In this document: piece after piece, positions 909 to 36,681 of the stretch
Layout: each line of letters opens with the position of its first letter
Position numbering within the stretch: position 1 is the stretch's first letter
DNA from: Rhynchonema sp. JSB1_4
Lineage: Eukaryota; Nematoda; Chromadorea; Monhysterida; Xyalidae
Assembly (NCBI GenBank): GCA_030248065.1
Contig: JASAMV010002757.1
Span: 1-64,000, forward strand
Reading direction: 5' to 3'
Length of the DNA stretch: 64,000 nucleotides
Made by a program: the position numbers and the translations under genes
The notes under the pieces: generated by a model
What the model was told of the DNA's origin: nothing
Databases searched by the model: none
What the model saw: only the letters and a program-made list of their open reading frames with translations

Positions 909-3900
909 GTGAGTATCCATGGACCGGTTCTTCAATCAAAGTCACCTCACACAATTGACTAATATCAAACTTGGTGATCGGATCATTTTGGATGCACAAG
1001 GCATTACAACTTGACAACATCGTGTGACAACATTTTCGTTTTGTCAACATCTTGTGTGAATGGATCGCAGGCACACCTTGCAAGGCATTACATGACTCAT
1101 GCATGTGTCCTTATTTCGCGTAAACTTTTCACAACCTTTATTCTACCGCATCAGGAACCCACTGTTCAAACCGCCTACAGTTCTTCACATCAGTGAAACG
1201 AGGCCGATAACACCCGATCATAAAAAAGGTAAAACAATCCAAACGTAAAACAAGTTGGCGGGAATGATTATTGTGCGACGGTTCGGCCCCGGGGCACAGG
1301 TTCAGCATTTAGTTCAGCCGGCCGATTCAGGCCCAGCATATGTGACCCATTTATAGGCTTAGGCTTAGGCTCCAGCCTGAAAAACTGGGCCTGAAAAGGT
1401 CGGGCCTGAACTTCCGGGCCTGAAAAGTCGCGGAAGAGAATAATGACCGCCGAAATGGTCAGACCCGCAGTTCAAATAATTAATGTGAGTCCGCGCTTCC
1501 TTTCTTCGGTTAATCGCACTTTTGCTTTAATCGCACTTTTGCTTACCGTATATATTTCCACATGGAACTCCCAAGTAGGGCGTTCGAGAGATTTAGGTGG
1601 AAAATTTTCCTTCAGAGTATGGTCGCGGAAAAATCGGTTCTTTATATTTTGTGGAAAAAAATTTCCAGAGGATCAATTTACAGTGCAGGGTGTCAGGTAA
1701 CAGCTACAGGGTATTTTGACCCCAAAAACTGGTGTCGCAAAAGCACAGTGCAAACGCACGATGTGCTGTCTAAGACTTAGAAACTGCTCAAAACCTCCAG
1801 TTTATATTGGTTTTCGGCACTTCGACTTTGACGAACTTCCATTACGTATATATGTATGTATGTATTCAAAAATGTATTTTTTTCCCAAAATTAGGAGAAC
1901 ATTTTATCCAATTTTTCTCTCGGAATTTAGTTTTCGATCCAAAAAATTGACCGGTTAATTTATTAAAATTTAATTTTGAATTTAATTAGATTTAATTTTT
2001 TTGTGTTCTACGAAAAAACCGTTTTTTTTCATCAACAGCTTTCCAAGGCCCCGTGGGCTCCAACAGCATCTTTCCTTCTTTATTGTCGGAGGGTCCATTT
2101 TCCAGCAACTTCCACTAAGCCCCTTGGACCTAATTCAGAAACTCAATCACTTGTTCAGCTCCAGTTCTCGTCCGAGTTCCCGTTCAGTCGTTGACTCCCG
2201 ACACAATCCTGTTGGTGCAGCATGATGCCCCCCAACTGCAACGTGTGACGATCGAATCCAATGGTGATCTGCGTGTGAGCACCGATGTTGGCATACGACC
2301 ACCAACGTACAGCAATATACCGAGACTCGTGTGGACGGGACGCACGTTGTGGTCGTTGGGGACATGGACTGGTGGTGAGTGACTGTGACAAGAGTGTTGA
2401 TGCGTTTGTCATTCGTTGTCAGCCACTTGTTTAATTCGTAGGTCTCAACAGTTACAGCGCCGGGTGCACTTTTAGGATGAAAGTCGAAGTCGGTAGCGCC
2501 CGCAACTTCGTGGTGTAAAACATGGGCAGCGCACAGCATCGCAAAACTTCTTCTGTTGCTTCGACTTTTTGCCAGTACTGTGCAAGACGAAGTTGCGTGC
2601 GTCACTGTAATAACGTGCTTGCTTGAATTGCGTGCTTGAATTGTAACCAATATTGTACACATATTGACTGACATCTTGTCAATGGAATTTGTAAACACAC
2701 TAAAACATGCGGGTTGCGCGAATCTGCGGATTTGTGGAGTGCCTCAAGGGAAAAGTTTCGTGAAGTTATATTGCAGCATGTGGGTACACTTTGGTAGCAT
2801 CATTCATGGCAGAAAAGAAAAACGACAATACAGGGCGCGCATTCGCGAGTTTGGAAAAATTGTCCCGTCCACAGGAAAAAAGTGTCAATTTTTTGGCCTC
2901 AAAAAAGGCCATTTTTGGACATTTCAGCCCTTTTTGGGCAACTTTTTTTATTAAAAAAAGCAAAATCTGAGTTTCAAAAAAAAATTTTTTTTTTAAAAAA
3001 TTTTTAATTAACCACTTTTTTGAAACAACCCTGATTCATGGCAGTGGCGGATCCAGCTTTCGGACCAAGCAGCGGGGCCAAATCTCAAAAGTCATTTTTA
3101 TCTGGTACATGTTTGATTTTTCAAATACCGTTTTTTCATCCGGTGCATGTTTATAAGTGGGAAATTTTAAGCCAAATACCGCACGAAATGTTATGAGCAT
3201 GCGCGCGTAGCGCGCGAAAATTTTGCGCTTTTTGCCCGCGTGACAGCCAAATTTTATGATGGGTGTATATGACGCGCTAACCGCGAGAATTTTTGATCTT
3301 TTAACTGTATTAGAGGGAAAATCCTGCGATATTGGGGCCTTTTTCTTCTTCTCTCCGAATTTCAGGGGCCACTTTGACCAAAGGGAGGCTTAGGCTGGGT
3401 GGATGGATCTTGTGCTTCCCTGGATCCGCCAGTGATTCATGGTTTGGTTTATCCATAATTTTGGCATCAAATGTTTTTTTGTGCAGCAAGGTGATCTCGC
3501 GCCATACCAAAGCAGATATTGGGCTTATATTACAGTGGTCAACTCAAGTGGTCGAATCAGTTCGTCAACTCACATTGTAGACTCGTCAACTCTCCCGAAT
3601 ACCGTGTATCATTCCTCGCGCTCATTTGGGGCAGCTGAGTTGACGAAGTGATTTGACCGCTTGCGTTGACTATTGTAATATTAGCCTGATGCCAACAAAG
3701 TGCAACATACTGAAACACAACAAGATCGTGAAGTGAACTGTTTTAGTGGTTGTTTTTGTATCTGCACTCCCGTTGTGTGTGAAATTGCCATTTCGCTGAC
3801 AAACAACACGCAACCGTCGACGTGTTTCCAATTGTTTGCAGATAAGCGCAAAGTCGAGCAGCTGGTCAATGGACAGTGGGTCAATCGGACGAACACAAAT

Positions 3901-6900
3901 GAAGATAGATACTACGGTGAGTGTTGAGCGACGGGTTTGAATTCCGAGACTCCGGGTCCGATATTGTGGGTCCAAGCCCAAGCCTAAACGCTCAAAATAC
4001 AGTTGACCTGGAACAGTTATGAATTCCCGGGCCCGAAAAGGTCGGGGCTGAAGATTCAGATCTGAATCCTTATGTCTGACAGCGGTCAGCAACACACATA
4101 CACACATGCAGAAAAGCTTTGTCCATCAATAGATGCTCATAAGTTCGCAGACAGTGCGAAAAGTGTGATTCTATGTGTTCTTAGGCAAAATAAACGGGTT
4201 TCAACCCTTTTCTAGCGAGTTGCTAAGATCCCATATCAGACCCGCATCGTGGGACCAACTTTGGCTGGGGTCATCACTGAAAGTCAAACTCCGTATATCG
4301 ACGTATCTCGATAAAGTAAAAATTGGTCGAAAATTTTTTGAAAAGAATGGGACCAAAAGTTGATTTTCCTTGATAATCAGGGTACTTTCCCTGAAAAATC
4401 AGGGAAAATCAAGGAAATTCAGGGTTTAAAAAAACGAAAAACGACCCAGGCGTTTTTTTTAAGAAAAAACGCCGTCGTTTTTTTTGCCCAACCCTGGTTC
4501 CGAGTGCAATTCTAGGCTGAAAGTTGAAGTCGCGTGCACGCGCGTGCACGCGACTTCCTAGTGCTAAAACATAGGGAGCGCACGGCAGCGCACGCGCAAA
4601 ACTTCGACTTTTGCCTATACTTTGCACGCGACTTCAACTTTCAGCCTAGAATTGCACCCGGTACTGTATTATTTCTCGCGCTCATTTGGGGCTCACGTAG
4701 ATATTATAGCTTGATTTGACGACTTGATTTGACGACAGTAGTATTAGTCGTTTTCACCAAGTTCAACTGAAGAAAAACGCCGCTGATCCTTTGGCGTGCT
4801 CTGTAGGCCTCCGCAGGTTACTCAGTTTATAGTAATGTAATCATGTCATGTCGTCACATTTCATCGTCAAACCACATGTATTATTTTCGCGCTCATTTGG
4901 GACTCATGTATTATTGCTTGTTATACGTAGTTTATAACTGCGAGTTTTGATTGAAGACGACGAAACAGTAAACTTTCCATATTGACCAAATTTGCGTCAT
5001 TGTATCGTCATGTCTCCTTGACAAAGCAAGGTTGTCTATTGCACCGTATAATATACCTGCGCAGTCATTTGTGACTAATTTGCAACATTGCGGTTCTCAT
5101 ATTTAAAAAAAAGGTTTTCCAAGCACAGTATCTACATATGTACATATGTACGTATGTACATGACACATTTTGTAAAACACTTGTAAATAAAGGCTTGATA
5201 GGTGTGAAGTAAGTGTTATCCCGGAGTTTTCCTTCCATACCCCATCCCCGAATATGCCCAGGGATTCCAGATAGAGCCATTCTACGTTATTTGGGATTTA
5301 TATTTCAAAGACCTGACTCAAAATAACATGAATTTAAACGTTTATCACAGATTGGCTTTAAGGAGTTTCCAAAAAAAGTGTCTCTGTTTGGGAAAAAAAT
5401 ATTCTTAATAAAACATTGGATTTTTGCACTTTTTCCGACCAGAGCCCCTGGGGCTCTATACGGAAAACAAGGTACTATGTGGCATTCTCATAAAATTGCA
5501 AAGTCCCAATCAAGCGAAATTGTGAATTTCACGTCTGTACAACTTTCGCATCCATATAAATTTCCATGTTCTGAATGCTCGCGGACATTAACAGCTGAAG
5601 TGTTGACCACGCAGTCAATCTTGAGTTCCAAAATCCTTTCGTTGTGTTCTGTGTGAAACATTACCCAGTATAAGTTACATTACCCATTATCACATCCAGA
5701 TGCATTCCCCCTGTGTTGCAGCTGGTGCCGGCTATCTGCCCAACGACGGCCTGTTGTTCGCATGTGGCTGTTGGCGGAGTGGTGACTGCAGTCGATCGTG
5801 CGAGTTCCGCAACGTGACCAACAACAACGACGGTGCTGCCTGGCAGACACGACCACTGCCCCAGGAATGGTGCTTCGAGGACATCGCATCCGTCGTGTAC
5901 AAGGTGGGTTTGCGATGTTGCTGATGTTTCACACATATGTAGACTGGTATGCTTCCTTTTGTTTTTTTGAATGTTAAAGTTTTGCTTGAAAAAGTGAAGT
6001 TTACTTTCGAGTGTGGAAAGACCACCGTCTGCGTGTAAGACAGCTAAGACTAAATACTGTACCGTATGTCCTCTAACAGAATCCCTGGTTTCTATTTTTT
6101 TCAGCCACCCTCTGACCATGGGGCTTCTATTAGAGGGGCTTCTACTGGAATGGGGCTTGTATTTTTCCCGGACATTGTTACTCGAGTGAGCTGTCTACCT
6201 TAATGATAAAGCAAACATTGAGCACTTGGGAAGCGAAATATGTAGACTTGAAGCTCGATATAACCGTTTCAACAGCGCAAAAGTCATTTGGTGCACATTC
6301 AATAGCTCAGAAGTGCTTGATAAAACACGTCACACTGTGAATATTGGCACAAAATGTTTGGGGGCTTCTATTGGGGGGGCTTCTACTAGAGGGGCGCTGC
6401 AATTGTAATTAAAGGAAATACGGTAGGCTGATAAAAGATTTAAAATTATGGGCTTTCTTGCACCACGACATTTGGTGCACCACTGTACCTGACAAAAAAT
6501 GTGGTCGATTTCAAACTTGGTGATCGGATGTGACACGCTTTGGTGGCGCGCGATTCCTGCACGTAACTAATGTTTCAATAACTGCGCGCAGGTCGCTGCA
6601 AATGCAATACAAATTTGTTCGTAGTGTTCGTTATGTTCGCGACGAACGAGTACAACTTCAACTTTAGGGATACCAGGAGACTTACTGAAGCCACTGATTT
6701 CACCCAGCTTAATAGTTACTCATTTTAGGTCCGTGAACGTCTTTAAGGGCGAACTTAGGTTAAATCAGGAATCCGGAACCCGGAAATAATTTGCACGCAA
6801 AAATATAAAACATTTCTGGGCTCCGGAATTATTTCCGGAAAACGCAAGAATTTGCATGTATAAATTGTGCGTTTTCCGGAAATATTTCCGGATTCCGATT

Positions 6901-11026: not shown

Positions 11027-11155
11027 CACAAGTGCACTCAAAGCATCAAGTTATGGCAAATGGCCAATCGAAACATCACCATTTTTCTTATTTTAAATAA
11101 AACCACATTATATTGGTCCAAACACCCACTCAACGTGCGATCCAGTTGTTCCTAG

Positions 11156-11381
11156 AGTGTGATGTTGTACATTGCCTTGATGCATGCGTGATATCGTGAA
11201 ACATTTATATTTGCTTATAATGCCACGCGTCGTGTGTTGTGTGTTCATTCATTCATTCGTTCAGTCAGTGTGTTTGGTGAGTTGGCAGTTGTGTGTTTTG
11301 GGCTTTGGGGTTGGTTCAGGAATAAAATATTATTACCCGAACATTGGACATCATCATAATCAAAAATTATAAACCCTAACT
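11156..11381 (+). repeat. 5' LTR
   Basis: This 226-bp copy matches the 3' LTR with one mismatch, A against C near its 3' end (ATCAAAAATT versus ATCAACAATT). It begins AGTGTGATG and ends CCCTAACT, so the outermost three bases are inverted (AGT...ACT). If TG is taken as the start, it runs 11158-11380. A TATA-like TTATAA is at 11215 and a polyadenylation signal AATAAA is at 11321. A short ATTC microrepeat lies in between. Confidence 0.92.
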
Positions 11382-11398
11382 GGTGGATCCCTGCGCGG
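11381..11398 (+). promoter_or_regulatory. Candidate tRNA primer-binding site
   Basis: TGGTGGATCCCTGCGCGG begins at the LTR edge. A TGG at this point is expected, because it pairs with the CCA end of the primer tRNA. The tRNA identity cannot be read here. The leader between the LTR and the ATG is only 33 bases. Confidence 0.6.
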
Positions 11399-11414
11399 TA
11401 CGACAAACCCCAAG

Positions 11415-14105
11415 ATGACCTCAAGTGAAAAGCATGCAGTTTTGGCGCGATCAGGTGCCTCTGGTGAACGAATCGATGTCGTGGCCATGTTACGGTTGTT
11501 GGACAAGATGGCGCAAAGGCCGAATTTGGTGTTTGCCAGTGAAATGCGTTCTGGTTGGTATCGGGTTCTGGTTTCGGATTCAAGTTTGCTTGATGCAGTT
11601 TTGGGTTTTATGCCAATTCTGACAGAGAGTTCGTTAGAAAATTGGGACGAGGTGATCAGTGATTTCGAAAATGTGACGTTATTGGTGTTCCGACAGTACA
11701 AGTGTGTACAATTTGAACAAAAAACTATGAAAAAACTGACCCAAATATTGGAGTATGACGAGTACGCACAGAAAGTTGACAGAGAAAATGGTGCTGAAAA
11801 GTGCAAAAGCGATGAGAGTCAGACCAAGAAAAAGTTGGCTTCGGTGGTGCCAAGTAACAGTGATGTTTCACAGAAAGGTTTTGGGGATGATTGTGATTTG
11901 GATGAGTTCTTTGATTCGTTTGAGGAATTGGAAACGGTGCTTCCATTGCAAATGAAACATATTGAAAAGGACCAGAAAAGAGGCCAAAAAGAATATGAAA
12001 AGGACCAAAAAAGAGGCCAGAAGAAAGACAAAAAGAATAAAAAGAGGCGAGAAGCCCATCCTTTTGACAACATTGAAATGGCCCATCAAAAGAGGCAACC
12101 TGCCCAAATCGCAACCTTCGAAAATGAAAACAAGGCCCAGCAAAAGAGGCAAAATGCCCAAAATGTGTTTGATAGTGAATTCAATGAAAACGGTCCAGAT
12201 GAAAAGATAACTGCAAACGGTCCATATGACGAGACAAATATTGAAAATTTGACCCCGGACACAAAGATTTTTGATTTGACGGACAGAACTAATGTGCGAA
12301 TTCCGGCTGGTGGGGTGCATAGGCCCCAAGTGCATTCTTTCAACACTGTACATGGTTTGTTTGAAGCGTTCAATGATTCGTCTGATGTTTCACTGTTAGG
12401 TGCTTTTGATCCGGTGACATCAAAGCGTCCCAATGACATGCATGTGACTGGGCTCAACACCCAGAACGTGTCAAATTCGTCGCCACGCACCATGCCAACA
12501 CAGCAGTACGTGAAACATTCAGATGATGTGGCAGTGCAGACAACGCCACGCAGCAACGGTGATGTATTGGATGAACTGCATCGAGTGGTTGGTATGAAAC
12601 GTGTGAATGTTGCATGTGACAACGCACCGGCCTTGTCGAATCAGGCTCCTGGCGAAACATTGCAAAGCACAGAGCAGGCAAAGTTGCTCGCGTCTTTGGT
12701 TGAGAGCAACCAGCAATTTGCTGAATCGGTGACTAAAATCATGCAGGAGATGGTGAAATGCGTGCAGTCTCAACTGAGTGCTAACAGTGTTAACCAGAAC
12801 ACCATGTCCGCAATGCATCTTTTGACTGGCAATTTCAATAAATTTGATGGGAAGTCAAACTTCAATTCATGGTACACGTTGGTCAAGGCTCGATTGGCCG
12901 AAAGCAAAGCCAACGAACAGACATCGCTGAATCATATTCGTCTATGCTTGAGTGGAGACGCTGAAACATTATTCGAGCGTCAGCCTGACTGCGTGAAAAA
13001 GAATTTAGCAGCCACGTTTGCGTTTCTGGAGGACAGATACGGTGATAAGCATCGTGAAAAGAAGGCGCAACAAGAATTGTTCTTGACCACGCAAAAGAAA
13101 GACCAGTGCGTGCGTGAATTCGCAAATCAATTGGAAGGTTTGGCGTTGACGGCGATACCACCTCGGTGTGCTGAATTTTATGGTTCAGACATTATGCAAA
13201 CACCACTGGTCGAAGCAGCGCTGACCAATCAACTGGCCAAAGGCGTGTATGATTCGAAAATACGCGAGCGATTGTTTGGCATGTTGGCTGATGGTGGTTC
13301 GTTCAATGAAATGAAGGACGTTGCCATTCGCATGGAAGAAGGACAAAGGCTGCAAGAGGAATACAAGAACTATGATGTTTCAAGGCCTGCGATTGAATGG
13401 CGCAGTAGTGGCAGAATGTTCAATCGTTCAAACAATGCGAACAACAGCCAGTGGCAGAATGAAGTGCTGAATTTCAATAGCACCAATTGTGACAATGGTC
13501 AGATTATGAATGGTCGGCAGCAAAATTGGCGTCAGGGAGGCTATAGAGACCGTCCGAACAACCACCAAGTGTTCAACAACCAGAACCAACAGTTTGATCA
13601 ATGTCAACAGCAGTTCAATGGCAATCAAACGTTCAATCGCACACCGGATCGCTTTTTGAGTGTGTTAGCTAAACTTCGTAACGAACCATCAAAGAATGTG
13701 AGTTGGTCGAAGCAAGTGTTGCCAGGAAAAAGCCACAATAAAGTTCGAGTTGTGAACCGTTCACCAGTGAATCCGAGTCTGCCACGGTTGGCTGGTAAGC
13801 CCATGAAATCATCAATGCTTGACTCAGGCGCAGATCAAAACATCATTCATCCCAATCTGGTGAAGCAATTGAAACTGAAAATGGAGCCAGAGGAAGAAGG
13901 ATATCTGTTGCTTGGTGCTGGTAATAAAGAGTTAGAGGTAAACGGTGTTGTGCACAGCAGTCTGGAACTGGACGGAGCAAAGTTGAACAACTGCAAGTTC
14001 ATTGTTACGCCGGATTCAGCCGGGTACGATCTGGTCATTGGTAGAAACACACTGAAAGACCTGGGAGTGAGATTTGTTGGCCCAAAAGGAACCATATTGA
14101 AGTAA
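11415..14105 (+). CDS. Retrotransposon Gag-aspartic protease polyprotein
   Basis: This single 896-residue frame makes the structural protein and protease of the LTR element. The N-terminal 180 residues are unassigned. Residues 184-216 are very Lys/Arg-rich with a repeated KDQKRGQK motif, and 217-450 look disordered. Residues 474-660 form a retroviral-type gag domain, with FNKFDGKSNFNSW at 474-486, a later CLSGDAETLFE and an FLEDRYG segment. Residues 669-742 are rich in Asn and Gln. The C-terminal part is a retropepsin, with catalytic DSGA at 803-806 and the hydrophobic-Gly motif DLVIGRNTL at 872-880. No CCHC zinc knuckle is present; the Arg/Asn/Gln-rich segment may bind RNA instead. The frame has no break and ends in TAA. 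The ATG at 11415 is the first in frame after the LTR. Confidence 0.9.
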   Translation: MTSSEKHAVLARSGASGERIDVVAMLRLLDKMAQRPNLVFASEMRSGWYRVLVSDSSLLDAVLGFMPILTESSLENWDEVISDFENVTLLVFRQYKCVQFEQKTMKKLTQILEYDEYAQKVDRENGAEKCKSDESQTKKKLASVVPSNSDVSQKGFGDDCDLDEFFDSFEELETVLPLQMKHIEKDQKRGQKEYEKDQKRGQKKDKKNKKRREAHPFDNIEMAHQKRQPAQIATFENENKAQQKRQNAQNVFDSEFNENGPDEKITANGPYDETNIENLTPDTKIFDLTDRTNVRIPAGGVHRPQVHSFNTVHGLFEAFNDSSDVSLLGAFDPVTSKRPNDMHVTGLNTQNVSNSSPRTMPTQQYVKHSDDVAVQTTPRSNGDVLDELHRVVGMKRVNVACDNAPALSNQAPGETLQSTEQAKLLASLVESNQQFAESVTKIMQEMVKCVQSQLSANSVNQNTMSAMHLLTGNFNKFDGKSNFNSWYTLVKARLAESKANEQTSLNHIRLCLSGDAETLFERQPDCVKKNLAATFAFLEDRYGDKHREKKAQQELFLTTQKKDQCVREFANQLEGLALTAIPPRCAEFYGSDIMQTPLVEAALTNQLAKGVYDSKIRERLFGMLADGGSFNEMKDVAIRMEEGQRLQEEYKNYDVSRPAIEWRSSGRMFNRSNNANNSQWQNEVLNFNSTNCDNGQIMNGRQQNWRQGGYRDRPNNHQVFNNQNQQFDQCQQQFNGNQTFNRTPDRFLSVLAKLRNEPSKNVSWSKQVLPGKSHNKVRVVNRSPVNPSLPRLAGKPMKSSMLDSGADQNIIHPNLVKQLKLKMEPEEEGYLLLGAGNKELEVNGVVHSSLELDGAKLNNCKFIVTPDSAGYDLVIGRNTLKDLGVRFVGPKGTILK

Positions 14106-14676
14106 AATGAATGGCAAAGCGGTTGTCCAACAAACCAGTAAAATACACATAAAGTACAATTTGTTGCTGTTATCGCAATGTGCGCCTCTTATTTGTGCTT
14201 GATAATCAGTCGAAAAAGTTAAAGTCTGCAACCAATCAAAGAAAAGCAGCAGCCAATTACGATGGTTTGAAATTGCTGGCTGGAAATGTATACACTCAGT
14301 TTGAAACAGATTATGCACTGAAACCTGTTCATCAAAAGATCGAAACTGGCAATCGTGTTGCTCATAATACATACAGAACTACCGTGGAAACAAAAGTAAC
14401 GCCAGACTGTTTTTGCCAGCGATATATATGCATTTTATGCCGTGATTATGATTTTTATCCGAAATCATTGCATTTATTCAGTGCTCTGTTTTCTTGATTC
14501 TTTTTTTCTTGTTGCGCGTTTTTTCTGCTGTTGTTTTTCGTGCTGTTTTGCCTTTCTGGTCATGTGCGTTCTGTTTTATCGCTTTTGTGTTTCGATTTGC
14601 AGTTTCTCCTTCTCTTGTTGTTTTTTTTCTTTTGCTGTTTTGCCCTGGGAAGGAGTTGGTGTTTCTTTGCTTTGTG
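14106..14676 (+). other. 3' non-coding part of the retroelement, possible pol relic
   Basis: This stretch follows the Gag-protease stop. A 105-codon open stretch without ATG (14180-14497) lies in the -1 frame relative to gag. It has no motif I recognise. It could be the remnant of a deleted pol or envelope frame, or chance. The last part (14490-14640) is T-rich. Confidence 0.35.
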
Positions 14677-14688
14677 AAAAAGGGGAGG
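14677..14688 (+). promoter_or_regulatory. Polypurine tract
   Basis: AAAAAGGGGAGG lies directly before the 3' LTR. This is the expected site and composition for the plus-strand primer of reverse transcription, and it supports placing the LTR start at 14689. Confidence 0.85.
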
Positions 14689-14914
14689 AGTGTGATGTTG
14701 TACATTGCCTTGATGCATGCGTGATATCGTGAAACATTTATATTTGCTTATAATGCCACGCGTCGTGTGTTGTGTGTTCATTCATTCATTCGTTCAGTCA
14801 GTGTGTTTGGTGAGTTGGCAGTTGTGTGTTTTGGGCTTTGGGGTTGGTTCAGGAATAAAATATTATTACCCGAACATTGGACATCATCATAATCAACAAT
14901 TATAAACCCTAACT
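14689..14914 (+). repeat. 3' LTR
   Basis: This copy has the same length and content as the 5' LTR except for one base. AATAAA at 14854-14859 would serve as the polyadenylation signal of the transcript. It abuts CTAG at 14915-14918, the likely target duplication. Confidence 0.92.
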
Positions 14915-15109
14915 CTAGCTAAGGTCGAAATTATGCGATTCACCTTGAAAATGCAAAGAAAGAGAAATCAGACGTCATACGCCACGTAAGATTCCGGCGC
15001 ACGAAACAATGTTTCAAGCTTCTGGTGACGTTGGCGGCGTGCATGTCACGTGTGATTTCTCTTTCTTTGCATTTTCAGGGAGAGTCGTGGATTTCGACCT
15101 CAGCTAGGA

Positions 15110-16601: not shown

Positions 16602-17588
16602 CCGGAGTTTTCCACTTAAAGCCCCGGGGGCTCTATGCGGAAATTGGTGGAAAATGGACCCTCCGACCAGGGTTGGGCAAAAAACGTTTTTTTTCAAAAA
16701 ATCGTTTTTTTAAAAAAAAACGTTTTTAAAAAAAAAACGTTTTTTTTAAAACGCCCAGATGACCAAAATATGCCCCCAAAAAAATTGGAAAACGCTCATG
16801 TTGGGAACAAAACGTGGTTAAATGAAGTAATTCTATGTGTTTTGAGGCAAAATAAACGGGTTTCAACCCTTTTATAGCGAGTTGTTAAGATCCCATATCA
16901 GACCCACATCATGGGACCAACTTTGGCCGGGGTCATCACTGAAAGTCAAACTCCGTATATCGACGTATCTCAACAAAGTAAAAATTGGTCGAAAATTTTT
17001 TGAAAAAAATGGGACAAAAAATTGATTTTCCTTGATAATCAGGGTACTTTCCCTGAAAAATCAGGGAAAATCAAGGAAATTCAGGGTTTAAAAAAACGAA
17101 AAACGACCTAGGCGTTTTTTTTGAAAAAAAAACGTCGTTTTTTTAAGAAAAAACGCCGTCGTTTTTTTTGCCCAACCCTGCTTCCGACCAGAAAGAAAAA
17201 ATCCAATTAGAGCCCCCGGGGGCTTTAAGTGGAAACGTTTCCACTTACAGCCCTCGGGGGCTTTAAGGTAAAAACTGGGTGTTTTCATCGTTCTCAGTAG
17301 GGACACTTTAGGCCAGCATTTTGACATTCTGATACCATATTTCAACCTGATTGTGAGGATCTTCATCTAAACGTGGCAAAACGTTGGTAAAACAACAGAA
17401 AAGTGCTGTATTTTGGTGATTCATACACTAGTTTGAACTATTTTGGCAAGTTTACTGTTCGATGTAAAATCAATGGTCCGTAAAAAAATAAATCCAATTA
17501 GAGCCCCGGGGGCTTTAAGTGGAAAATTTTCCACTTAGAGCCCCCGAGGTCTCTATTCGGGGGGGGGGCTTTAAGTGGAAAACTCCGG
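16602..17588. mobile_element. MITE, family O, copy 2, split by a hAT MITE
   Basis: The left end is CCGGAGTTTTCCACTTAAAG and the right end is CTTTAAGTGGAAAACTCCGG. Inner blocks carry AGAGCCCCCGGGGGCTTTAA. The family A element at 16668-17180 interrupts it. Without that insertion and its duplication it would be about 466 bp. Confidence 0.75.
16668..17180. mobile_element. hAT-type MITE, family A (CAGGGTTGGGC ends), copy 1
   Basis: The 513-bp element starts CAGGGTTGGGCAAAAAACG and ends GCCCAACCCTG. Flanks CCTCCGAC and CTTCCGAC form an 8-bp target duplication with one mismatch. The CAGGG ends and 8-bp duplication point to the hAT superfamily. T- and A-rich stretches flank a core with paired motifs such as TTTCCCTGAAAAATCAGGG. 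It is inserted inside another element (16602-17588). Confidence 0.9.
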
Positions 17589-22868: not shown

Positions 22869-23770
22869 CCCCCCCCCCCCCCCCCGGTAGGCTCATCCAC
22901 CAGGCCGGGCCTGGTAGGACCGGCCCGGGGCTTCCAACTCGGCTCGCCGGCCAAGGGGGGCTTCGCTAACTCTCGGGCCCGGATTCTCTGATCGGGCTGG
23001 GCCAGGGCGGGGGTTCCATGACTCGGGCCGGGCCGGGGGGGGGGCTTTTCCTAACTCGGGCCAGGCCACGGGGGTGCTCTCCCTAACTTGGGCCGGGCCA
23101 AGGGGGGAGGGGCCTTTCGCTAACTCGGGCCGGGACGGGCCCCCCGGGGGGGGCTTTACCCAACTTGGGCCGGGCCCAGGGGGCTTTCCCTAACTTGGGC
23201 CGGGCCAAGGGGGAGGGGGGCTTTCGCTAACTTGGGCTGGGCCGGTCCCGGGGGGGGGGGCTTTTGCCAACTCGGGCCGGGCCCGGGGGAGGGGCTTTCC
23301 CTAACTCGGGCCAGGCAACGGGGGTGCTCTCCCTAACTTGGGCCGGGCCAAGGGGGGAGGGGGCTTTCGCTAACTTGGGCTGGGCCGGGCCCCGGGGGCG
23401 GGGGTTGCCCACCCTCGGGCTGGGGCGGGCCCGGGGGGGGGGGCTTTCCCTAACTCTGGCCGGGCCAAGGGGGGCTCTAACTTGGGCCGGGCCCAGGGGG
23501 AGGGGGCTTTCGCGAACTGGGGCTGGGCCGGGACCGAGGGGGCGTTTGCTAACTCGGGCCGGGCCCGGGGGGGCTTTCGCTGACTCGGGCTGGGCCGGGC
23601 CCGGGGGGGGGGGGGGTTTGCTAACTCGGGCCGGGCCCGGGGCTTTCGCTAACTCGGGCCGGGCCCCGGGGGGCCTTCGCTGACTCGGGTCGGGCCCGGG
23701 GGGCTTTCGCTAACTCGGGCCGGGCCCGAGGGAGGCTTTCGCTAACTCAGGCCGGGCCGGGGAGGCTGAA
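22869..23770 (+). repeat. G-rich minisatellite preceded by a C run
   Basis: A run of about 17 C (22869-22886) is followed from about 22930 by some 24 imperfect units of 28-45 bp, built on CTAACTCGGGCCGGGCC, a run of 5-12 G and CTTTCG. Unit variants swap CTCGGG and CTTGGG. Open frames through this array, with Gly/Pro/Arg-rich translation, are a by-product of the repeat. This GC-rich island stands out in AT-rich surroundings. Confidence 0.95.
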
Positions 23771-25905: not shown

Positions 25906-26410
25906 CAGGGTTGGGCAAAAACGTTTTTATTTTTCAAAAAATCGTTTTTTTTTTAAAAAACGTTTTTTTTAAAAAAACGTTTTTTTAAAACGCCCAGATG
26001 ACCAAAATATGCCCGCAAAAAAATGGAAAACGCTCATGTCGGGAAGAAAACGTGGTTAAATGAAGTAATTCTATGTCTTCTGAGGCAAAATAAACGGGTT
26101 TCAACCCTTTTCTAGCGAGTTGCTAAGATCCCATATCAGACCCGCATCATGGCACCAACTTTGGCCGGGGTCATCATTGAAAGTCAAACTCCGTATATCG
26201 ACGTATCGAAGTAAAAATTGGTCGAAAATTTTTTGAAAAAAAATGGGACCAAAAATTGATTTTCCTTGATAATCAGGGTACTTTCCCTGAAAAATCGGGG
26301 AAAATCAAGGAAATTCAGGATTTAAAAAAACGAAAAACTACCCAGGCGTTTTTTTTAAAAAAACGTCGTTTTTTTTAAGAAAAAACGCCGTCGTTTTTTG
26401 CCCAACCCTG
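25906..26410. mobile_element. hAT-type MITE, family A, copy 2
   Basis: The 505-bp element has the same ends and core as the copy at 16668. It is flanked by a perfect 8-bp duplication GCCCTGCA (25898-25905 and 26411-26418). This is the best evidence for hAT membership of the family. Confidence 0.93.
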
Positions 26411-27354
26411 GCCCTGCATTTGCACTGATGATGACCTGGTGCACCACTGTCAGTGGGAAATGTGACAGTTGAACAAAGGAAGACTGTTTCAGGGTATTCT
26501 CTGATCTGATTAATTGAATTATCTGATCTCTATCTTCATATCTCGATTGAAGGTGTGCATTGGCTGAAATCTCTGTTGAATAAGGACCGGTATCAAACTA
26601 GGTAATAGGTCTTGTCCGATTTTGCATCAAGATTTTCCTGGTATGCCAACGAATTTGGCTAGATTTACTGAATTTCCCTAATTTCGACCCATGTGAAGGA
26701 TCCACGTAACTACAGTATCCTAAAACAATTTTTACGCTGGTCAAAATTCCACAGTGGCAGCAGTAAATGTCGATAATACGAAAAGTCACGTGACCGTGTG
26801 CGTACCCGACCAACCAGCAAGTTTTATGAAACCAAACTGTTTCTGAACGGTTATTCCTGTCACTTTTACTTCACGTCAATTAGGCCGCAATTGTAAGGGT
26901 ATAATTTCTAGCATTACAACCAGGATGACCCCAAGTTGTATAATTGTGGTGATATCGATACTTTGTCCTACAGTTTTACAGCCCCAACACGGCAATTGCT
27001 ATACTATTGCAAACGTACATACATCGCATTGTTTCTGGCTGCTTTATCAACGGAGTATGCGTTTTATTCTTGTCGAATAATAAATATACGTAGCTGCATA
27101 TTTCGATAACGGTCCCCAAAATAAATAAAGTTTCATATTTTCATTTTATTTCTGATAACGTTAAGCCGCCTAAAAACATTCGAATGCAATAAGTTGCAAT
27201 GTTCAAACTCAGTGGGACCAAAGCTGCGCCCACTTAATTTTGTTCGCGTTATTTGTCAGCAGAAAACTTTTTCTGATAACGGTTCTGAATTAAGCATTTT
27301 GTTGTACATATATCGTTTTATATTTACTACCACTTTAAGCGTGGTGATATGTTA

Positions 27355-36122: not shown

Positions 36123-36168
36123 TGTGATGACTATCTAGAGTGCATTTTAGTTGCGTGTGACTTATAAC

Positions 36169-36681
36169 CAGGGTTGGGCAAAAAAAGGACGGCGTTTTTT
36201 CTTAAAAAAACGACGGTTTTTTTAAAAAAAACGCCTGGGTCGTTTTTCGTTTTTTTTAAGTCCTGAATTTCCTTGATTTTCCCTGATTTTTCAGGGAAAG
36301 TACCCTGATTATCAAGGAAAATCAATTTTTTGTCCCATTTTTTTCAAAAATTTTTCGACCAATGTTTACTTTGTCGAGATACGTTGATATACGTAGTTTG
36401 ACTTTCAGTGATGACCCCGGCCAAAGTTGGTCCCACGATGCGGGTCTGATATTGGATCTGTAGCAACTCGCTAGCAAAGGGTTGAAACCTGTTTATTTTG
36501 CCTCAGAACACATAGAATGACTTCATTTAACCACGTTTTCTTCCCAACATGAGCGTTTTCCATTTTTTTTGGGGGCATATTTTGGTCATCTGGGCGTTTT
36601 AAAAAAAGTTTTTTTTAAAAAAAACGTTTTAAAAAAACAACGATTTATTTATAGAAAAAAAACGTTTTTTGCCCAACCCTG
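36169..36681. mobile_element. hAT-type MITE, family A, copy 3 (inverted)
   Basis: This 513-bp copy lies in the opposite orientation to copies 1 and 2. It has both CAGGGTTGGGC ends. Instead of an 8-bp duplication it is flanked by a 33-bp direct repeat (36136-36168 and 36685-36717) with two mismatches. Confidence 0.9.

What the first reader, a model, noticed from the sequence alone, without database searches (positions are those of the whole stretch)
11156..14914. Young LTR retrotransposon that carries only Gag and protease
The element is structurally complete (LTRs, primer site, one intact 896-codon frame, polypurine tract, target duplication). Its LTRs differ at 1 of 226 bases, so it moved recently. 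It has no reverse transcriptase, RNase H or integrase. Most non-autonomous LTR elements have lost coding capacity altogether; one that keeps a long intact Gag-protease frame suggests selection on that frame. It may package its own RNA and borrow enzymes from a partner element.
Basis: partly seen in the sequence, partly recalled or inferred. Interest (0 to 1): 0.75.

Follow-up and report, generated by a model that had tools for sequence, protein, structure and literature searches.

The report
Pol-less LTR element with Gag and protease
This is a recently moved jumping element that makes only its own shell protein and protease, belongs to an old line of such elements, and probably borrows copying enzymes from related complete elements; relatives on this line seem to have swapped shell genes with those complete elements.

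Summary
The element (11156-14914) has 226-bp LTRs differing at one base, a CTAG target duplication, primer site, polypurine tract and one intact 896-codon Gag-protease frame. It is not a one-off deletion. Seven copies (plus one 5' fragment) carry internal sequence; six of the seven reach the place where pol would stand, and none of the six has it. No stop lies in the aligned frame of the seven; dN/dS is 0.19 (capsid core) and 0.11 (protease). More diverged pol-less families exist in the same 204-Mb genome. In a protease tree the pol-less rows form one clade. In a capsid tree they are scattered, and four families carry the Gag of four different pol-bearing elements. Tails of two pol-less relatives still hold the pre-RT linker and integrase C-terminus. 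So an ancient in-frame deletion of RT-RNase H-integrase probably founded the lineage, which then exchanged LTR-leader-gag halves with pol-bearing elements. No pol-bearing partner of the window family was found in this assembly. Most likely it makes its own particle and protease and borrows the enzymes. Comparable plant systems are published (Athila; wheat WHAM/Sabrina; Quinta). Protease retention with recurrent Gag exchange makes this a new variant of a known kind.

The parts
11152..11155 (+). target-site duplication, left copy (CTAG)
   Evidence: read directly; matches 14915-14918
11156..11381 (+). 5' LTR, 226 bp, AGTGTG...AACT
   Evidence: 225 of 226 bases equal the 3' LTR
11381..11398 (+). 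primer-binding site, TGG-TGGATCCCTGCGCGG (first T shared with LTR end); tRNA not identified
   Evidence: position and TGG start; a pattern scan finds the frame TGGTGGANNNCTGCG at 12 places in other copies and related elements
11415..14105 (+). Gag-protease ORF, 896 codons, ATG to TAA
12735..13394 (+). capsid-like core of Gag (residues 441-660)
   Evidence: AlphaFold model and VIA alignment to Arc, PNMA2, Ty1, Copia, HIV capsids; dN/dS 0.19
13395..13760 (+). Q/N-rich region (about residues 661-782); the zone in or near which mosaic relatives change partner
   Evidence: (dN/dS 0.73)
13761..14102 (+). retropepsin-like protease (residues 783-896, LDSGAD motif)
14106..14676 (+). 3' untranslated region; its last part is similar to the 3' regions of other pol-less elements and of pol-bearing C5333
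14677..14688 (+). polypurine tract AAAAAGGGGAGG
   Evidence: directly abuts the 3' LTR
14689..14914 (+). 3' LTR, 226 bp
14915..14918 (+). target-site duplication, right copy (CTAG)

Best explanation
A semi-autonomous LTR retrotransposon of Ty3/gypsy kinship. Steps inferred: the LTR drives an RNA; its single frame makes a Gag-protease polyprotein that assembles into particles and is cut by its own protease; RT, RNase H and integrase come from a pol-bearing relative in the same particle; the partner's integrase inserts the copy at CTAG-like sites. History (supported by sequence): an ancestor lost RT-RNase H-integrase by one in-frame deletion. The protease-bearing 3' module then persisted under selection. 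Four sister families bear LTR-leader-gag halves, or gag alone where the 5' end was not held, matching different pol-bearing elements, with the switch between the capsid core and the protease, most simply by template switching between co-packaged RNAs.
For: Copies: of 7 with internal sequence, 6 are informative and all 6 lack pol. Selection: dN/dS 0.20-0.52 over 21 pairs; by region, protease 0.11, capsid core 0.19, Q/N 0.73; WIN-C1107 32 synonymous to 35 non-synonymous, binomial p 9e-7. No stop in the aligned frame of 7 of 7 copies (a separate 3' piece of C2391 has one TGA). Protease tree: 12 pol-less rows one clade against 8 pol-bearing, 96/99, 88/92 with 25 more residues and 100/98 without outgroup. 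Capsid tree: the label needs 6 changes, one clade rejected, p-AU 2e-125. Breaks: C2740 99.4% to C4102 over 2516 nt, then 73.5%; C5218 98.3% to C1475, then 74%; C1857 92.6% to C849, then 69%; C1291 95.5% to C2123, then 72%. Deletion scar: C1291 tail against C5333 integrase end 58 bits, C1857 tail 33.5 bits, 0 of 1000 shuffles each. Shared primer-site frame and CTAG-like targets.
Against: No pol-bearing element with the window family's own LTR or Gag was found. The genome search with RT did not complete, so partners are uncounted. Raw protease identity does not separate the groups (window to C2740 62%, to C5333 63%), and the window branch is long; a tree that makes the seven other pol-less rows a clade without the window family is not rejected (p-AU 0.30). 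The window element keeps no trace of the integrase tail. The C2740 tail taken alone does not beat shuffles (2 of 1000 reach it). The assembly is a draft and several copies sit at contig ends. The capsid model is of middling confidence. No expression or protein data.
Confidence: 0.72

Rival explanations
1. Recent one-off pol deletion from a full-length element (dead on arrival).
For: One copy in the window; pol loss by deletion is common in principle (established knowledge).
Against: Two complete copies with the same structure at two loci with their own CTAG duplications (WIN, C1107) and further partial copies; no pol-bearing copy with this LTR found; dN/dS below 1 among copies that share the pol-less structure.
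Confidence: 0.03
2. Repeated independent pol deletions, one in each pol-bearing family, so that each pol-less family comes from its own Gag partner and no Gag exchange took place.
For: Each of four pol-less families pairs in Gag with a different pol-bearing element; C2740 and C1857 also pair in the LTR, with C4102 and C849.
Against: Their proteases are 69-74% identical in DNA to the Gag partner's but form one clade among themselves, share the KVR(V/I)VN(R/Q)S...PRLAGK-like lead-in (C260 and C1291 vary at one place each), and the tails of C1291 and C1857 both join linker to integrase end.
Confidence: 0.08
3. Pure parasite: the frame is kept only because translation or a cis-acting RNA element in it is needed, not because the protein is used.
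For: Nothing here shows protein function directly; packaging signals often reach into gag (established knowledge).
Against: Constraint is on amino acids, strongest in the protease and capsid core and weak in the Q/N-rich part.
Confidence: 0.1
4. Domesticated host gag-protease gene.
For: Intact frame under purifying selection.
Against: LTRs, target duplication, primer site and several insertion sites with near-identical LTRs.
Confidence: 0.01

Closest known systems
RLG_WHAM and RLG_Sabrina_SA of wheat, partner RLG_Wilma (PMC9744471; passages and section 3.2 read)
   Same: Gypsy elements that encode only Gag and protease, called semi-autonomous; long-lived; thought to supply Gag while the autonomous partner encodes RT and integrase.
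   Different: Plant, high copy. The passages read do not describe repeated capture of different partners' gag halves by one protease module, nor a deletion scar with the integrase end.
Pol-less Athila families of Arabidopsis (PMC2410132; abstract, passages and Discussion read)
   Same: Whole families without pol, intact gag under purifying selection (omega 0.19-0.38 for the gag rows seen), four recombinations between families, including hybrid Gag.
   Different: Gag or Gag+Env; the word protease does not occur in the text held; plant.
RLG_Quinta with RLG_Cereba of wheat (PMC11302176; abstract and passages read)
   Same: Non-autonomous partner with intact Gag, shared primer site and LTR ends, Gag recombination between Quinta sublineages ascribed to template switching.
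   Different: Gag plus a domain of unknown function, no protease; centromere targeting.
TR-GAG elements (seen only as a term in a search listing; definition recalled)
   Same: LTR elements with a gag domain and no pol.
   Different: Protease content and recombination not compared here.

Membership tests
LTR retrotransposon | two LTRs, primer site, polypurine tract, target duplication | tested here: met
Ty3/gypsy (Metaviridae) | RT of Ty3/gypsy type | tested here: inconclusive
   the element has no RT; the RT of relative C5333 matches Ty3 RT best (4ol8, 2e-69) and RVT_1 and RNase H models
Ty3/gypsy (Metaviridae) | order protease, RT, RNase H, integrase | tested here: inconclusive
   not applicable to the pol-less element; in relative C5333 protease, RT and RNase H are in that order by Pfam and integrase follows by reading of its motifs (motifs recalled, no Pfam run on that part)
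Semi-autonomous Gag-protease element (WHAM/Sabrina_SA type) | intact Gag-protease frame, no RT or integrase | tested here: met
   capsid and protease folds
Semi-autonomous Gag-protease element (WHAM/Sabrina_SA type) | several copies, family without pol | tested here: met
   of 7 copies 6 informative, all 6 pol-less
Semi-autonomous Gag-protease element (WHAM/Sabrina_SA type) | pol-bearing partner with shared primer site and LTR ends | tested here: inconclusive
   primer-site frame shared with C4102 and C849, the LTR is not; sister pol-less families C2740 and C1857 do share LTRs with C4102 and C849
Semi-autonomous Gag-protease element (WHAM/Sabrina_SA type) | mobilised by partner enzymes | not testable with these tools
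TRIM / LARD | no coding capacity (recalled) | tested here: not met
   896-codon frame under selection

The most novel reading that the evidence does not exclude
A standing division of labour: the pol-bearing relatives encode Gag, protease and pol in one open frame without a visible frameshift, so they would make Gag and Pol in equal amounts; Gag-protease-only satellites, each matched to one partner's Gag by recombination, supply the excess Gag. The old protease module is then a stable 'satellite cassette' that repeatedly re-dresses itself in the Gag of whichever partner is active.
Probability: 0.25. Interest if true: 0.78.

Novelty: new variant of a known kind. Interest (0 to 1): 0.6.

Why it matters
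It bears on how non-autonomous elements outlive their partners. 'Host switching' through transfer of LTR sequences by gene conversion or template switching has been suggested for wheat Angela (PMC9744471, section 3.2). Here one protease module is joined to four different partners' gag halves in one genome, with breaks in the stretch between capsid core and protease, and with strong selection on a protease that has no pol of its own to process. That makes the question whether pol-less elements are parasites or Gag suppliers open to direct test.

Tried and rejected
Single deletion, host gene, and independent deletions: see rivals. Protein relatives of the Gag-protease in 5.8 billion proteins: none at E<=0.001 among the 7995 candidates scored. 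RT relatives of C5333: 2128 hits among 7983 candidates scored, 27-48% identical in the 120 listed; the named ones are mostly animals, with four from Tanacetum; host not identified. tRNA genes (ARAGORN) and Rfam families (gathering threshold) in the window: none. Pfam gag model: no hit (none either). A test for integrase remains in the window's 3' region gave nothing (blastx best E 0.34). The tRNA of the primer site could not be searched. The genome search with RT was asked 18 times and never answered, so numbers of pol-bearing elements are unknown. Trees hold 20 chosen rows (18 in the tree without outgroup), not all 67 matches; matches without fetched sequence (most of those under about 40% identity), and fetched pieces C2346, C3793, C148 and C2078, were left out.

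Full report

The family. The LTR search gave 12 places, the internal search 8 matches at 94-100% on six contigs. These are seven copies with internal sequence and one fragment: the window; C1107 (complete, LTRs 2 differences in 214, own CTAG duplication, intact 896-codon frame); C904a and C904b; C131 (one copy, plus an inverted 5' fragment not used below); C3911; C2391. Two further LTRs stand alone or next to short remains (C5694, C1293). Window, C1107, C904a, C131 and C3911 run from the protease through the same 3' region (583 bp in the window) into the 3' LTR, and C2391 runs past the end of the frame; C904b is cut by a contig end before that point. So of 7 copies 6 are informative, and all 6 lack pol at the same place. 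No stop occurs in the aligned frame of the seven, though C904a, C904b, C131, C3911 and C2391 cover only part of it; the further 3' piece of C2391 (residues 796-883) has one TGA.

Selection. Over the 21 pairs of copies dN/dS is 0.20-0.52. Pooled over pairs, which are not independent, it is 0.30 for the Gag N-terminus, 0.46 for the middle, 0.19 for the capsid core, 0.73 for the Q/N-rich part and 0.11 for the protease. Because the informative copies share the pol-less structure, these changes most likely arose after pol was lost. Changes after insertion are included and push the ratio up.

Relatives with and without pol. The protein search gave 67 matches. Those I could read fall in two kinds. 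Pol-bearing: C5333 has an open frame of 1790 codons from within Gag to the integrase end (the match to the window's Gag starts at residue 187, so its 5' part is not established); C4102, C1475, C849, C5115, C1154, C2346 and C458 have open frames of 1445-1842 codons (stops occur in the Gag part of C849), and C2123 one of 1994 with one TAG. Pfam finds RT in the three tested (C4102, C5333, C1154) and RNase H in the last two; for C1475, C849, C5115, C2123 and C458 RT was read from the translations, and for C2346 only the frame length and the shared LTR and leader were seen. The integrase of C4102 is broken and interrupted. Pol-less: C2740 (LTRs 283 of 283 identical, CTAG on both sides, frame 1048), C2448 (LTRs 3 substitutions and 1 gap position, CTAG on one side only), C1857 (LTRs about 86% identical in the aligned part), and partial or rearranged C5218, C260, C1846 and C1291.

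Mosaic structure. In the protease tree the 12 pol-less rows are one clade against 8 pol-bearing rows, 96/99. In the capsid tree the same labels are scattered: C2740 and C2448 with C4102, C5218 and C260 with C1475, C1291 with C2123, C1857 with C849 and C5115; holding them together is rejected (p-AU 2e-125; the group was named after seeing the data). Only the window family has no pol-bearing partner. DNA comparison shows sharp breaks: C2740 and C4102 are 99.4% identical over 2516 nt from the LTR into the Q/N-rich region and 73.5% in the protease. The pol-bearing C4102 and C1475 themselves share the pol half at 99.2% and differ in Gag. Within the window family C904a is 0-0.8% from C1107 in columns 1000-2500 and 0.0% from the window element in columns 2500-3250. 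The breaks lie in or near the Q/N-rich region. Assembly error could make some of these joins, as about 160 nt there are nearly identical in four elements, but pairs at 5-7% divergence (C1291/C2123, C1857/C849) and C2740 with its matching LTRs and target duplication are hard to explain that way.

The scar. After the protease the seven pol-less relatives of the other families continue for 119-175 codons. In C1291 this tail matches first the linker before RT (C849, E 4e-5) and then the integrase C-terminus almost to its end (C5333, 58 bits, E 4e-14 in a five-sequence set; 0 of 1000 shuffles reach it). C1857 shows the same order more weakly (33.5 bits, 0 of 1000). The C2740 tail alone is not significant (25.0 bits, 2 of 1000). 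I infer one in-frame deletion of the RT-RNase H-integrase core in a common ancestor. The window family stops right after the protease and keeps no tail, so its descent from that event rests on the protease tree and the shared lead-in before the protease, not on the scar; and a tree with the other seven pol-less rows held apart from the window family is not rejected (p-AU 0.30).

Shared machinery. A pattern scan finds the primer-site frame TGGTGGANNNCTGCG at 12 places besides the window, in pol-less copies and in pol-bearing C4102 and C849; the more distant C1154 group has another one. Insertion sites are alike: of 10 window-family insertions 7 have CTAG and 3 CTAA. Of 11 others with a readable outer flank 7 have CTAG (C2740, C4102, C1857, C1846, C2078, the LTR on C1475, and C2448 on one side with ATTT on the other), 2 CTAT (C849, C5218), 1 ATAG (C260) and 1 CAAC (C1291, a rearranged place). 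The C1154 group has CTAT, CTAA, ATAG, and C2867 and C4991 ATAT and TTAG. CTAG makes up 70 of about 64,000 positions in the window. A shared target in both kinds fits insertion by the same type of integrase.

A second pol-less group. C2867 and C4991 (36-37% identical to the window's Gag; frames 831 and 821) are 96% alike from the protease to a common 3' end 1.1 kb on, and no pol-like stretch was found in 3 kb. The last 39-42 nt equal the LTR end of the pol-bearing C1154, C458 and C2346 at 92-95%. I could not fetch their 5' parts. Pol loss with retention of Gag-protease may therefore have happened more than once.

Comparison with print. Searches (12-20 papers listed of 40-166 each; titles and abstract starts seen) led to close precedents in plants: pol-less Athila families with selected gag and recombination (PMC2410132), Gag-protease-only WHAM and Sabrina_SA (PMC9744471), Quinta (PMC11302176). 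I saw no Gag-protease-only case outside plants in those listings; that is not proof that none is published. The Athila authors and the wheat authors already raise cooperation; the wheat authors also raise partner switching. What is added here is the combination: protease kept under the strongest constraint, a deletion scar, and one protease module joined to four Gag partners in one genome.

Noticed in passing
C2867:13600-14705 (L075) and C4991 (L076, minus strand): A second group of Gag-protease-only frames (831 and 821 codons) whose 3' LTR end equals that of pol-bearing C1154/C458/C2346; no pol-like stretch in 3 kb downstream.
   Followed up: partly
window 11150-11155 joined to 14919-15109: With the element taken out, the site is one end of an imperfect foldback repeat of about 197 bp (CTAGCTAAGGTCGAAAT...ATTTCGACCTCAGCTAG), so the element sits at the CTAG end of a MITE-like sequence.
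   Followed up: partly
C904:12830-19629, C131:1-5487, C1291:73120-79322, C1475:12355-12607: Element pieces in inverted order on the same contig; nested insertions, rearrangement or assembly joins.
   Followed up: no
window 22984-23767: G-rich repeats of the type GGGCCGGGCCCGGGGG-CTTTCGCTAACTC in several partly ordered copies.
   Followed up: no
window 4112-4489, 16670-17177, 25906-26411, 36168-36681(-): A dispersed repeat family with ACGTTTTTT runs in four copies.
   Followed up: no
C4102:7494-8638 (L073): The integrase frame of this pol-bearing element is shifted and interrupted by about 1 kb of other sequence.
   Followed up: no
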